From a virus, in the IMG/VR virus record IMGVR_UViG_3300039159_000052, positions 1 to 29,052 of that record: a DNA stretch of 29,052 nt. One strand, given 5' to 3'. The position numbers and the translations under genes are program-made. Within the stretch, counting starts at the first letter, position 1; every line of letters begins with the position of its first letter. Below the pieces are notes generated by a model. It had not been told where the DNA came from. It saw only the letters and a list, made by a program, of their open reading frames with translations, and did no database searches. This document shows, piece by piece, positions 17,674-21,925 of this stretch.

Positions 17674-18318
17674 ATGTCAAACGTAAGAGTACTTACTTCC
17701 CCCGCAGCAATCGCGGCTGAATCACTCAGCATTGCAGGTTACAGCACTACAACCCATCGCACCATAACAGCTCGGTTTAGGAACCCTGCCAGAATGGCCG
17801 CAGTTATCATATCTACTGAAGCCTGGCAGACAATGACAGCGTGTATCGGAACAGAAGGTGCTCCATATGCTAGCTTGCTGGGTGCAGTGCTGGACACAGC
17901 GGCGAAAAGCATACTGACACGCCGCATAGGTGAAATGTCAGTGTTCCCTACAGAAATAGATGATGCGATATTTTCAGCCGATGCAATCTTGACGGAGGCA
18001 ACTAGCGGTAACAGCGACTGGCTGAGTAAGGAAGAACTGACGCAAGCATGGGAAGCCAGCGTAACTAGAAACAGTTTCACCAATGACCCGCGTTATCTCA
18101 TAAACGCACAGTACCGTAAGGCAGTATCCGCGTTCGCTGACCTAGTTATCAAGCTTGCGGGCAAGACTTCTACGTATACAGAAAGTGAACTGGATACCAT
18201 GCAAGTTAAGATGAAAGAGGAAGACCATGACAGCGAGCTTATGGCATTTATGAACCGCAGAATTGAGCAAATCAGAAATAAGCCAGCAAAGCCAGCGTTT
18301 GATATGGACTTACTCTGA
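17674..18318 (+). CDS. Unknown 214-aa protein with DMDLL tail
   Basis: First rightward gene, in its own unit with promoter and terminator, so probably an early protein. No family recognised. It is mostly helical (ASLLGAVLDTAAKSILTRR; QYRKAVSAFADLVIKLAGK) and ends PAFDMDLL. Length, general helical layout and tail match the 213-residue protein at 10959-11600 on the other strand, so distant paralogy is possible, though no clear full-length identity is visible by eye. AGGAAA precedes the ATG. The last codons TTA CTC TGA are the start of a 12-bp unit repeated four times past the stop. Confidence 0.82.
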   Translation: MSNVRVLTSPAAIAAESLSIAGYSTTTHRTITARFRNPARMAAVIISTEAWQTMTACIGTEGAPYASLLGAVLDTAAKSILTRRIGEMSVFPTEIDDAIFSADAILTEATSGNSDWLSKEELTQAWEASVTRNSFTNDPRYLINAQYRKAVSAFADLVIKLAGKTSTYTESELDTMQVKMKEEDHDSELMAFMNRRIEQIRNKPAKPAFDMDLL

Positions 18319-18357
18319 TACTTACTCTGATACTTACTCTGATACTTACTCTGATAC
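18310..18357 (+). repeat. Four perfect 12-bp tandem copies across a stop codon
   Basis: TTACTCTGATAC is repeated at 18310, 18322, 18334 and 18346 with no change. The first copy contains the last two leucine codons and the stop of the 214-residue protein. Because the unit is a multiple of three and contains the stop, copy-number change cannot alter the protein. Two further TGATAC remnants follow (18358, 18380 region). Confidence 0.97.
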
Positions 18358-18387
18358 TGATACAGAGACCCTAAGCTACTGATACAG

Positions 18388-18414
18388 AAACCCAGCTAAC
18401 TACTGGGTTTTTTA
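18388..18414 (+). terminator. Rightward intrinsic terminator
   Basis: AAACCCAG (18388-18395), loop CTAACTA, CTGGGTTT (18403-18410), then a T tract TTTTTT to 18413. It isolates the gene at 17674 from the packaging genes downstream. Confidence 0.88.
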
Positions 18415-18420
18415 TTACCA

Positions 18421-18545
18421 TGATAGCGAAGTAAGTGCTTACTAACATAGCGCAACAGCCGCTCCCTACGGTCGCTATCGAGTGTGCTTCGCACAAATGC
18501 AGGGGAGGTAGGAGCCTTTTTCAAAGGCTGGCTAGCGCTATATCC
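18421..18545 (+). ncRNA. Candidate structured RNA or regulatory element
   Basis: Several perfect stems are packed together. GATAGCGA (18422-18429) pairs with TCGCTATC (18472-18479) and encloses AGTAA-GTGC-TTACT (18430-18443). TGTGC-TTC-GCACA lies at 18483-18495, and AGCCTTT-TTC-AAAGGCT at 18513-18529. GCTCCCTAC (18461-18469) can pair with GTAGGAGC (18508-18515) with one bulge, which would cross the first stem and form a pseudoknot or an alternative fold. No coding frame is supportable in 18415-18697. The rest of this 283-base gap is AT-rich around 18560-18590 and has no strong promoter. RNA status is a hypothesis. Confidence 0.4.
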
Positions 18546-18697
18546 TATGGAACACTCCCAAACTTTCTAAATTTTTTAAATATACAAACAATAGATGCCA
18601 GCATCTTCTCGCGCCATGGGTAACACCAGGCTTCTCACCCTTGCCGCCATAATAAGATAATAACTCGTCACCTGGCCTCTCTCACCTACGCCTTGCT

Positions 18698-19822
18698 ATG
18701 TCTAACCTTCTTGCCAACATCTTTTCAGCAGCAGACTCACTCAAGCGTACACTTGGTGATGCACTCACGTCTCCGATGCTAGCCGCGCAACAGGTAGTTG
18801 GCAACGGCATCGATAGAAGAAATAAGCAACAGGAAGATGCAGCAACAAGCATGAGCAAGAGTGTCCTTGTTCCGGAGTGGCAAAAGCGTGCTGCCATGTC
18901 GAGAGTAGCAAGTAATGTTGGCACTCAAGATTCGCTTGCTGGGGATGTGCTCACAAGCATTATCGTACCAGCTAAAAGCATTGCTCCGTTCGCAGTTGGC
19001 AAAGCACATAAGCTAATTGACGCTGGGAAGATAGAGGAGGCGTACGAGAAGTTTCGCATGTTTGTAGATCCCATAGATGGTAAGCTCAAGTCAGTGATTC
19101 CTGACACTGGGCGCGTAACTGGTAATAAGCTACGCCAAGCTTTTCCTGGTGACTTAGTAGCAGCTCCTAAGCAAGCTGACAATGTAATGGCATCTGACAT
19201 GATGCGCACAGATGACTTACCAGGTGAGCTGGCACAGTTGCTGTCCCAGACGAGGGTAATCCCAGGACATGGCTCAGGTGCTTACTATTCCCCGGGTCTG
19301 AGCACAATTGGGTTAGGATTATCACGAACACCAGAAAGAGCTGCCAGCAAACTGCTGCACGAGTCACAGCACGCTGCGCAAACAGCATACGGTATGGGTA
19401 AAGGTGGCAGCCCAGAGAACTTCTATGGAAACTACGGTGAGTTCTCAACTGCGGAGTCACTTCTACGTAACATATCAGAAGACTTCGGTAGCGCTATGGG
19501 AAGCGTGCGGCCGCTGGATATGGGAACTATTTCTGGTATGTCCCGCAGCCAGGTGTTGGCGCACCCTGGGGCTGTAGGTAGTTTGTTTGAGATGCTAACT
19601 GCTGTTAAGCAAAAGGCACACAGCTACTATACTAAGCTACCAGGTGAAGTAGAGGCCAGACTTGTGCAAAAGCAGTTTGAGGATGGCAACTACTCAACAA
19701 ACCCAGTGTTCCTTATGGACACCCACGCGGCTGATGTTGTTCATAACCCTGGCTTGGCACCTAAAGTAGATGCTGACCCCATCACCCAGTCAATCATCAA
19801 CAAAGTACTGGGTAAGCCCTAG
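18698..19822 (+). CDS. Zincin-like metallopeptidase, phage polyvalent-protein type
   Basis: A 374-residue protein. KLLHESQHAAQ gives the zinc-binding HExxH signature at H221-E222-x2-H225. About 90 residues later comes LPGEVEAR (316-321), whose Glu could be the third zinc ligand of a gluzincin. This HExxH ... GEvEAR pattern is found in peptidase domains attached to phage and mobile-element polyvalent proteins. The N-terminal 100 residues are helical with no motif. The position directly before terS suggests packaging, capsid maturation or entry of a co-injected enzyme, but the target is unknown. It lacks a Shine-Dalgarno site before ATG 18698, unlike its neighbours. No signal peptide or membrane segment is seen. 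Confidence 0.72.
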   Translation: MSNLLANIFSAADSLKRTLGDALTSPMLAAQQVVGNGIDRRNKQQEDAATSMSKSVLVPEWQKRAAMSRVASNVGTQDSLAGDVLTSIIVPAKSIAPFAVGKAHKLIDAGKIEEAYEKFRMFVDPIDGKLKSVIPDTGRVTGNKLRQAFPGDLVAAPKQADNVMASDMMRTDDLPGELAQLLSQTRVIPGHGSGAYYSPGLSTIGLGLSRTPERAASKLLHESQHAAQTAYGMGKGGSPENFYGNYGEFSTAESLLRNISEDFGSAMGSVRPLDMGTISGMSRSQVLAHPGAVGSLFEMLTAVKQKAHSYYTKLPGEVEARLVQKQFEDGNYSTNPVFLMDTHAADVVHNPGLAPKVDADPITQSIINKVLGKP

Positions 19823-19862: not shown

Positions 19863-20456
19863 ATGATTGACAAGAAAACAGTAGCCAAGTACCTGGCACA
19901 GGGCATACCAACTCAGCAAGTAGCGGCCGCAGTTGGCTGTGAGGAATCATACATATCACAACTACGAGCTGATCCTGAGATTGTTGCCATGATTGCTGAG
20001 CTAACAGTAGCTATAACCACGAAAGATGTGGACTACGACGAGCGCATGAACAGTGCGGAGGAGAAAGCACTAGAGCGTATTGAGAAAAGCCTAGGGTTCG
20101 CTAACTTTTCTCAAGCCCTGGCAGCATTCCGCACCCTAAATAATGCACGCAGACGTAAAGATGGGCCAGTGACTGCGAATGTTACCAATCTAAATGTCAC
20201 CTTGACCTTACCAGCATCTGCTATTCCTCGCTATCTCACTAATAGCCAGAATGAAATCATCGAAGTAGAAGGCAAAACTCTCGTGTCTGCAACGCCCGCA
20301 TCCCTGGAGGCTGTCATGGCCGCGCGCATGGGAGACAAACTCAAGCCTGCTATCAGTCATGATATGAAAGGAGCTGAAAGACTAGGCGCATTGATGCCAC
20401 TTCCGCCCCGCAGCCCCCGTAAACTTCCCACTGCGTTAACTCCGGACATGCTATGA
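19863..20456 (+). CDS. terS: Terminase small subunit
   Basis: A 197-residue protein with an N-terminal helix-turn-helix (KTVAKYLAQGIPTQQVAAAV, then GCEESYISQLR; residues about 5-36), the DNA-recognition region expected of TerS, followed by a helical segment with many Glu and Arg residues that would form the oligomerisation core. The C-terminal third is Pro-rich and ends LTPDML. It overlaps the large subunit start by four bases (ATGA), the usual terS-terL coupling, and has a strong AGGGGGA before the ATG. The role is to recognise packaging sites and regulate the motor. The call rests on the HTH and on the neighbour. Confidence 0.82.
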   Translation: MIDKKTVAKYLAQGIPTQQVAAAVGCEESYISQLRADPEIVAMIAELTVAITTKDVDYDERMNSAEEKALERIEKSLGFANFSQALAAFRTLNNARRRKDGPVTANVTNLNVTLTLPASAIPRYLTNSQNEIIEVEGKTLVSATPASLEAVMAARMGDKLKPAISHDMKGAERLGALMPLPPRSPRKLPTALTPDML

Positions 20457-21925
20457 GCAATGACACCGTAGATCTAGGCACTGATGCGCACGAAGCGCAG
20501 GCATTGGCAAAGAAAGACTTGAACTTTCTAGGCATGTTAGCTGCGCCGGAGGATTTCACCCTGGCATTTCCGCTGTTTTACCTTGCCTTGTTTGGCATGT
20601 TGACCGCGTTTACTAAAAAGATTGAGCGCTTTGCTATTGGCATTCCCCGGGGGTTTGCTAAGACTACATTCATCAAACTCTTGTGCCTCTGGTACATTTT
20701 ATTCTCTCACAAGAAGTTTATACTTATTGTAGGCGCAGCAGAGGAGCTAGCAGTTAACACTCTTGCTGATGTCTGTGACTTTCTATCCTCTCCTAACATT
20801 GTAGCTTTGTTCGGCAGGTGGAATCTGGCTATTGAGGTGGACACGCAGACGTTGAAAGTATTCCATTTCCGGGGGCGTAACATTATTCTGCGCGCCATTG
20901 GAGCTGGCACAGCCGTGCGGGGTATTAACAGAAAGAATGCACGTCCTGACGTCATTATTATGGATGACGTACAGAAAAAAGAGGACTCTGTAAACGCAGA
21001 ACTAGCTAAGTCACTGCTCACTTGGATTCTCGGTACCCTAGGCATGGCGCGCAGTAATGATAACTGCACCTACATCTACGTAGGTAACATGTACCCCACC
21101 AACTGTATTCTTGAGAAGCTTAAAAATAACAGCCAGTGGACTTCTCTCATTGTTGGTGGATTGCTTGCTGACATGACTAGCTTGTGGGAGGAACTAAAAC
21201 CTGCTGAGGATCTACTGTCTGAGTATCAAGCACTCCTAGAGATTGGCCAACCAGAAATTTTCACGTCGGAAATTCTGAATAACACAGAAATTTCAGGCAT
21301 GAGTGGCATTGATCCTCACAAGTTTCCAGTTATCCCAGATTACTATGAAGATGCAGATGCGGAAGGATCGTTTATTCTCATTGATCCCTCGTCAGGTAAG
21401 AAACAAGGAGATGATTGCACTATCAATCATTACTCTGTAGTTGACGGCAAGCCAATATTTGACTGGCTAGAAGCTGGAACATTCTCACCTAAGGAAGTAA
21501 TCACCACTGCCATAGGCATGGGCATTAAGCACAATACTAGACTCATCTGTGTGGAAGATGTGGCATACCAGTCTACTTTGTTATTCTGGTTTAATGAGTA
21601 TTGCGAGGATAAGGGAATCAGCGGGTTTGAGTTTATGCCAGTCTCCCCAAAAGGGCGTAACAAGAACTCTCGCATTAAGGCTGGACTTATCCGCGTCCTC
21701 AAAAGTGAAATCTATCTGCACTCTCGCGTGCGGTCGCATGTTATCTCCCAGACTGTAGATTGGAACCCACTTAAGACTAGCAACAATGATGATATAATAG
21801 ACCCTATCGGATATGTTGAAGAAGTAATGCGTGAGTACCCAGAACTCATTGTTAAAAACATCTTTAATGTTGATGAAGAATCGGAGGGAGCATCTCACAT
21901 GGGTGATCTTGCTCTGCCATTCTAA
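20453..21925 (+). CDS. terL: Terminase large subunit
   Basis: A 490-residue packaging motor protein. The ATPase domain has Walker A GIPRGFAKTT (63-72) and Walker B VIIMDDVQ (D171, D172). The RNase H-like nuclease domain has D311 (ILIDPSSGK), E368-D369 (ICVEDVAYQ) and a later basic/acidic segment (SRIKAGLIRVLKSEI). It cuts concatemers and pumps DNA into the prohead through the portal protein encoded next. Length is normal for the family. From sequence alone I cannot say whether it packages headful or from cos or terminal-repeat sites. Confidence 0.95.
   Translation: MSNDTVDLGTDAHEAQALAKKDLNFLGMLAAPEDFTLAFPLFYLALFGMLTAFTKKIERFAIGIPRGFAKTTFIKLLCLWYILFSHKKFILIVGAAEELAVNTLADVCDFLSSPNIVALFGRWNLAIEVDTQTLKVFHFRGRNIILRAIGAGTAVRGINRKNARPDVIIMDDVQKKEDSVNAELAKSLLTWILGTLGMARSNDNCTYIYVGNMYPTNCILEKLKNNSQWTSLIVGGLLADMTSLWEELKPAEDLLSEYQALLEIGQPEIFTSEILNNTEISGMSGIDPHKFPVIPDYYEDADAEGSFILIDPSSGKKQGDDCTINHYSVVDGKPIFDWLEAGTFSPKEVITTAIGMGIKHNTRLICVEDVAYQSTLLFWFNEYCEDKGISGFEFMPVSPKGRNKNSRIKAGLIRVLKSEIYLHSRVRSHVISQTVDWNPLKTSNNDDIIDPIGYVEEVMREYPELIVKNIFNVDEESEGASHMGDLALPF

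What the first reader, a model, noticed from the sequence alone, without database searches (positions are those of the whole stretch)
18698..19822. HExxH metallopeptidase encoded directly ahead of the terminase genes
The HESQH site and the distant GEVEAR glutamate make an active zincin plausible. The gene lies where no packaging function requires a peptidase, and no serine-type prohead protease is visible in the head cluster. It may mature the capsid or the large internal protein, or be delivered to the host.
Basis: partly seen in the sequence, partly recalled or inferred. Interest (0 to 1): 0.6.

Follow-up and report, generated by a model that had tools for sequence, protein, structure and literature searches.

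The report
Phage-head zincin with swappable relatives
A short-tailed phage carries, just before its DNA-packaging genes, a zinc-peptidase-like protein whose front end is shared with proteins that carry quite different host-modifying enzymes at the same place in other phages, which suggests a protein packed in the virus head and delivered into the bacterium rather than a capsid-trimming enzyme.

Summary
The gene is real: 374 aa, HESQH at 221-225, GEVEAR at 316-321. It has no database family of its own, but belongs by leave-lineage-out profile (E 3.5e-30) to the LPD23/zincin pair known from giant phage "polyvalent" proteins. In 40 relatives H221, E222, H225, Y311, G316, E317 and R321 never vary; a predicted core (pLDDT 85) has the zincin order of elements. 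So "active zincin plausible" holds. Placement beside the terminase genes recurs in many phages. Capsid maturation is unlikely: sister phages with 77-78% identical capsid proteins show no such gene, it evolves far faster than the head genes, and no capsid propeptide is visible. New observation: the first ~43 residues are a module shared with other proteins in the same slot that carry ADP-ribosyltransferase-like, GNAT or other domains instead of the zincin (66 distinct proteins, 28 with zincin). A profile of ART-bearing N-termini alone finds this protein (E 3.6e-13). Best reading: a virion-packaged, host-delivered protein-modifying effector in a polymorphic cargo slot. Delivery, zinc, activity and target are inferred, not shown.

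The parts
18698..19822 (+). zincin-domain protein (374 aa), first gene after the late leader and directly ahead of the terminase genes
18698..18826 (+). residues 1-43: N-terminal module shared with proteins that carry ART-like, GNAT or other C-terminal domains in the same slot
   Evidence: E 2.2e-16 leave-lineage-out; E 3.6e-13 from ART-bearing proteins only
18953..19117 (+). residues 86-140: degenerate LPD23-like segment (aligns with the Pfam LPD23 region of relatives; below Pfam detection in this protein)
19220..19687 (+). residues 175-330: zincin core
19358..19372 (+). HESQH, residues 221-225 (two predicted Zn ligands and general base)
19643..19660 (+). GEVEAR, residues 316-321 (E317 predicted third Zn ligand)
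19763..19819 (+). residues 356-374: C-terminal tail conserved in the near lineage (47-73% identity, above most of the body)
18391..18413 (+). terminator-like hairpin CCCAG-N7-CTGGG-T6 between the upstream gene and the zincin gene; similar hairpins in relatives (read by eye; not listed by the scan)
18541..18575 (+). conserved noncoding element TATCCTA..TTCTAAATTTT, one copy in the window; precedes the zincin gene here and TerS itself in phages without the zincin gene
17674..18318 (+). upstream gene of unknown function, conserved with or without the zincin gene (so not its immunity gene)
19863..20456 (+). putative terminase small subunit
20453..21925 (+). terminase large subunit

Best explanation
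The gene encodes a stand-alone zincin-domain effector, probably made late with the packaging genes. Its N-terminal module (about 43-90 residues, predicted helical at low confidence) probably serves to load it into the phage head, and the zincin domain, predicted to bind Zn through H221, H225 and E317 with E222 as base, cleaves a protein of the host after ejection with the DNA. The slot ahead of the terminase genes is polymorphic: related modules carry ADP-ribosyltransferase-like, acetyltransferase or other domains there. Shown: the ORF, the conserved site, the family link, the slot, the domain swapping. Inferred: zinc binding, proteolysis, packaging, ejection, host target.
For: Ten invariant active-site/core residues in 40 relatives. 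Leave-lineage-out profile E 3.5e-30. Predicted core pLDDT 85, pTM 0.81, with helix, three strands, HExxH helix, Glu helix, the zincin order given in PMC5512222. Closest predicted structures in BFVD are polyvalent-domain phage proteins. LPD23 in 30 of 40 relatives; the same LPD23-zincin pair lies in giant phage proteins, a class proposed to be packaged and injected. N-terminal module shared by 66 distinct proteins, 28 zincin and 38 other, 29 of these in one ART-like cluster; most lie within about 1500 bp ahead of TerL. ART-only N-terminal profile finds this ORF alone in the window, E 3.6e-13. A second, unrelated N-terminal module also carries either ART-like or zincin domains ahead of terminase. 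Gene not found in sister phages.
Against: No virion proteomics, no zinc or activity data, no known substrate. The module's packaging role is inferred only from recurrence and position. The zincin-free sisters form the outgroup of the four zincin carriers, so absence may be one ancestral loss or gain rather than frequent exchange within this lineage, and most sister records are fragments. PDB fold matches are weak (Z at most 5.8). ART-like calls rest on sub-threshold Pfam matches.
Confidence: 0.66

Rival explanations
1. A virion-maturation peptidase that trims an internal or ejection protein (or itself) inside the head, as suggested for zincins of polyvalent proteins such as P1 DdrB and N4 vRNAP.
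For: PMC5512222 proposes autoprocessing or in-head processing by these zincins. Position next to head genes. P1 DdrB is processed before packaging (cited there).
Against: The module also carries ART-like and GNAT domains in the same slot, which would not fit a fixed maturation step. Zincin-free relatives share the same head plan. N4 vRNAP is packaged unprocessed.
Confidence: 0.17
2. A prohead protease that matures the major capsid protein.
For: Located in the head module; no other protease recognised there.
Against: Capsid proteins 77-78% identical, with the same N-terminus, occur in phages where no such gene was found, one record being 43.5 kb. The capsid N-terminus has only about 15 residues before the conserved region and no delta-domain-like extension. 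The zincin keeps 33-44% identity where capsid, portal and TerL keep 75-81%.
Confidence: 0.05
3. An HExxH-fold protein that is not a peptidase (for example an alpha-ketoglutarate-type HExxH oxygenase) or a structural or regulatory relic.
For: The HExxH oxygenase ChlB (8s5f) and SjiH (22ob) appear among weak fold matches. The N4 structure paper notes that HExxH also occurs in radical SAM/alphaKG-HExxH proteins.
Against: The general base E222 and the downstream Glu E317 are both invariant in 40 relatives, and Pfam matches of relatives are to peptidase families (DUF6782, M78). Zincins such as IrrE, PprI, VgrG2b and lethal factor score as well or better.
Confidence: 0.12

Closest known systems
LPD23-zincin unit of phage polyvalent proteins (Iyer et al. 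2017, PMC5512222; Pfam PF18838, DUF6782)
   Same: Order LPD23 then HE.QH..Q ... Y....GE.EAR; homologous by profile; found in giant phage proteins such as that of MW202426 (3145 aa) and F116 gene 60.
   Different: Here stand-alone, 374 aa, one enzymatic domain, LPD23 degenerate and below Pfam detection, with its own N-terminal module.
EBPR podovirus 3 gp3 (AEI70965; BFVD F8TUW9 by length and rank, taken to be the same protein)
   Same: Stand-alone zincin directly ahead of TerL in a phage with homologous TerL, portal, scaffold and capsid.
   Different: 28% identity over the matched part, overlaps TerL, N-terminal module not detected by the A3 profile. Annotated hypothetical.
MuF polymorphic toxins (PMC5576092)
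   Same: Conserved N-terminal part plus variable C-terminal enzyme (metallopeptidase, ART), encoded in the DNA-packaging module, proposed to be delivered with DNA.
   Different: No MuF domain found; N-terminal module different and short; no immunity-like small ORF downstream (TerS follows).
Phage ARTs encoded beside terminase/portal genes (PMC9503650)
   Same: Same proposed logic: effector gene beside the terminase, packaged in the head and injected.
   Different: That survey covers NAD/ADP-ribose enzymes; a shared N-terminal module linking them to zincins and GNATs was not seen in the passages read.
IrrE/PprI (M78-like) peptidases
   Same: HExxH helix similarity by profile (E 0.007) and weak fold match (Z 5.5-5.8, about 90-100 residues).
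   Different: Weak scores only; large insert between the two active-site helices here; no sign of the rest of IrrE.

Membership tests
Zincin metallopeptidases (gluzincin type) | HExxH plus a downstream Glu, invariant across the family | tested here: met
   H221, E222, H225, E317 invariant in 40 relatives
Zincin metallopeptidases (gluzincin type) | Helix, three-stranded sheet, HExxH helix, helix with Glu | tested here: met
   Predicted core model, pLDDT 85: H91-98, E101-104, E110-113, E118-121, H127-146 (HESQH at 136-140), H230-244 (E232 = E317)
Zincin metallopeptidases (gluzincin type) | Fold match to solved zincins | tested here: inconclusive
   IrrE Z 5.5, PprI 5.2, VgrG2b effector 4.8, lethal factor 4.7; all below the level the tool calls trustworthy
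Zincin metallopeptidases (gluzincin type) | Zn binding and proteolysis | not testable with these tools
   needs protein
LPD23-zincin of polyvalent proteins | Homology to LPD23-bearing zincins | tested here: met
   Leave-lineage-out profile E 3.5e-30; 30 of 40 relatives match PF18838
LPD23-zincin of polyvalent proteins | Own match to PF18838 at Pfam cut-off | tested here: not met
   0 families for the window protein
Polyvalent proteins | Several disparate enzymatic domains in one polypeptide | tested here: not met
   One recognisable enzymatic domain in 374 aa
MuF polymorphic toxins | N-terminal MuF domain | tested here: not met
   No Pfam match
MuF polymorphic toxins | Small immunity ORF downstream | tested here: not met
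   Next gene is the putative TerS, conserved in zincin-free phages
MuF polymorphic toxins | Conserved N-terminal part with variable enzymatic C-terminal parts, in the packaging module | tested here: met
   66 proteins, at least five kinds of C-terminal part
Prohead proteases | Serine-type or assemblin-like protease domain | tested here: not met
   No such family found in this protein
Prohead proteases | Capsid protein with cleavable N-terminal extension | tested here: not met
   No extension visible; same N-terminus in zincin-free phages

The most novel reading that the evidence does not exclude
The ~43-90-residue N-terminal module is a head-packaging signal that defines a family of polymorphic virion effectors, separate from MuF, in which zincin, ADP-ribosyltransferase-like, GNAT and other enzymes are exchanged in one slot beside the terminase genes of environmental phages.
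Probability: 0.5. Interest if true: 0.74.

Novelty: new variant of a known kind. Interest (0 to 1): 0.58.

Why it matters
If right, a gene unmatched by Pfam, PHROGs and PDB sequence searches is a small host-directed enzyme in a recurrent cargo slot, and the position beside terminase plus the N-terminal module can be used to find many more virion-delivered enzymes in phages. The module itself would be a testable, short head-loading tag.

Tried and rejected
Direct Pfam, PHROG, PDB-sequence and phage tblastn searches of the protein gave nothing at normal cut-offs; the first viral-contig scan with the single sequence failed because its exact peptide patterns are not conserved.

Immunity or antitoxin role of the upstream gene 17674-18318 rejected: it is kept in phages without the zincin gene, and its SUKH-3 match is E 0.07.

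The full-length structure model was poor in residues 1-85 (pLDDT about 35-57), so no fold is claimed for the N-terminal module beyond a low-confidence helix forecast. Foldseek against PDB gave no match at E below 0.001.

Host identification by genome contigs failed for the N-terminal module, and the zincin scan gave only seven distant MAG loci. Zincin not found elsewhere in the PaP2, Aeromonas P5 or Polaromonas Tiera genomes. The giant EBPR podovirus 3 gp20 has no Pfam domain, so a link between the zincin and a polyvalent-type internal protein in that phage is not shown.

No paper in the held library describing this N-terminal module was found, but the library lacks preprints and most subscription journals.

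Full report
Observation. ORF 18698-19822 (+) encodes 374 residues with HESQH at 221-225 and GEVEAR at 316-321, exactly as described. It is followed after 40 bases by a putative small terminase (19863-20456; weak PHROG terminase and HTH_23 matches) and the large terminase (20453-21925; phrog_38, E 1e-52), then portal (phrog_15554, E 6e-60), a scaffold-like gene, an SU10-type major capsid protein (Pfam E 8e-36) and an SU10-type adaptor. The window is an IMG/VR record of 29052 bases, probably a fragment. The minus-strand half carries replication genes such as a family A DNA polymerase and a UvrD-like helicase.

Family. The protein alone matches no Pfam, PHROG or PDB sequence family (E up to 1, 0.1 and 1). 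Distant homologues appeared in EBPR podovirus 3 (gp3, directly ahead of TerL), in Manatee Spring phage MW202710 (420 aa, directly ahead of a 112-aa gene and TerL) and in a 3145-residue protein of MW202426. These match Pfam LPD23, and two of them DUF6782, 'putative metallopeptidase'. Close relatives occupy the same slot in L015, L016 and L017 at 44, 36 and 33% identity. A scan with the combined alignment gave 80 loci, and a profile then marked 121 ORFs (some from overlapping loci), nearly all with HE.QH and GE.EAR-like motifs. A core profile built from 33 relatives without the window's lineage finds this ORF alone among 159 window ORFs at E 3.5e-30. In 40 members H221, E222, Q224, H225, Q228, G236, Y311, G316, E317 and R321 are invariant, and 30 of the 40 match LPD23. 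In the window protein LPD23 is degenerate: it aligns but is not detected by Pfam.

Fold. The full-length model is confident only for the core. A core model of residues 86-345 has pLDDT 85 and pTM 0.81, with a helix, three strands, the HExxH helix and a later helix that starts with G316-E317. This is the zincin plan described for polyvalent proteins (PMC5512222). Among viral predicted structures the best matches are a 335-aa protein with the length of EBPR podovirus 3 gp3 (F8TUW9) and polyvalent-domain proteins (E 4e-8 to 1e-3). Against the PDB the matches are weak, but IrrE, PprI, the VgrG2b effector, anthrax lethal factor and minigluzincins recur among unrelated helical rows. An HExxH oxygenase is also in the list, so proteolysis is not proven by fold.

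Position. Stand-alone members lie shortly ahead of TerS/TerL (for example L015, L016, L017, L048, L059, L072, L099) or between TerL and portal with gaps of 6-43 bases (for example L036, L037, L046, L053, L112, L133); others are parts of proteins of about 1800-3800 residues (L098, L124, L094, L069, F116, phage AF). So the position is not odd within this family; it recurs beside the packaging genes.

The N-terminal module. Residues 1-43 are more conserved in L015 and L016 (62-65%) than most of the body. A profile of the four near relatives found the same module in more distant zincins (L076 E 1.7e-10, L040 1e-8, L065 1e-6). A scan with ten such N-termini gave 66 distinct proteins: 28 have the zincin and 38 do not. 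Clustering of the C-terminal parts gives one large ART-like group of 29, two proteins with a second ART-like type (by resemblance to the MW202462 protein, read by eye), two GNAT proteins, and a few others including one with a weak MATCAP match (L217). ART-like labels rest on Pfam ART-PolyVal matches of E 1e-3 to 4e-6, below the curated cut-off. Forty-four of the 66 have TerL starting within about 1500 bases downstream. A profile made only from 27 ART-bearing N-termini finds the window's zincin ORF and nothing else in the window, E 3.6e-13. Independently, a different N-terminal module (first ~98 residues of MW202462's protein) is shared by 40 proteins in an ART-type cluster and by three zincins. 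Two unrelated front ends, each joined to either enzyme in the same slot, is the pattern of a cargo slot with exchangeable effectors.

Capsid maturation. Phages L019, L020/L021 and L022 have the upstream gene and TerS but no zincin gene between them. A 43.5 kb relative (L032) and PaP2, P5 and Tiera have no match to the zincin or module profile. Capsid proteins of zincin-free IMG/VR relatives are 77-78% identical to the window's, with the same short N-terminus. A protease needed to cut the capsid protein would not behave so. A limit: the zincin-free relatives (TerL 69-73%) are the outgroup to the four carriers (78-81%), so within this lineage the pattern could be one gain or loss, and most records are fragments.

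Regulation. The zincin gene starts after a terminator-like hairpin and a conserved noncoding stretch (G-rich run, then TATCCTATG ... TTCTAAATTTT at 18541-18575). The same stretch stands before the zincin gene in carriers and before TerS itself in non-carriers. So the zincin gene sits between the leader of the packaging operon and TerS. Whether the stretch is a late promoter or a packaging site was not tested.

Mechanism and its certainty. Shown: gene, conserved active-site residues, homology to LPD23-zincins, recurrent slot, shared and swapped N-terminal modules, absence in sisters as far as sequenced. Inferred: Zn site, proteolysis, head packaging through the module, ejection, host protein as substrate. 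Comparable proposals exist: polyvalent proteins (PMC5512222), MuF polymorphic toxins (PMC5576092) and terminase-adjacent ARTs (PMC9503650). The new parts are the stand-alone zincin with this front end and the swapping of zincin, ART-like and GNAT domains behind it. I put host-delivered effector at 0.66, in-head processing at 0.17, non-peptidase HExxH protein at 0.12, capsid maturase at 0.05.

Noticed in passing
window 18500-18580: Conserved noncoding stretch (G-rich run, CCTTTT, TATCCTATG, TTCTAAATTTT), one copy of the TATCCTA..TTCTAAA element in the window; also before TerS in zincin-free relatives and in distant L046 (3284-3318). Candidate late promoter or packaging (cos/pac) site.
   Followed up: partly
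window 18308-18358: Perfect 12-bp tandem repeat ACTTACTCTGAT, 4.2 copies, across the stop of the upstream gene; not seen in the upstream regions of the relatives printed.
   Followed up: no
L022 1521-3803; L032 21-1727; L028 921-4214: In zincin-free relatives, long fibre- or decoration-like genes are inserted ahead of TerL (in L022 between TerS and TerL), so this part of the packaging operon takes up varied genes.
   Followed up: partly
L161 1725-3044: One module protein carries two ART-like parts in a row (phrog_2579-type segment and ART-PolyVal-like segment).
   Followed up: no
L173 239-847 and 2205-3245: Two proteins with the same N-terminal module on opposite strands of one contig, one LPD23-type and short, the other ART-like.
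   Followed up: no
L217 4992-6017: Module followed by a domain with a weak match to MATCAP (tyrosine carboxypeptidase), E 2e-4; would be another peptidase-like cargo.
   Followed up: no
L076 3796-5346: 516-residue protein of unknown family whose stop overlaps the start of the zincin gene; possible second cargo protein.
   Followed up: no
window 17674-18318: Conserved gene of unknown function at the start of the plus-strand block, 42-63% identical in near relatives, with only a sub-threshold SUKH-3 match.
   Followed up: partly
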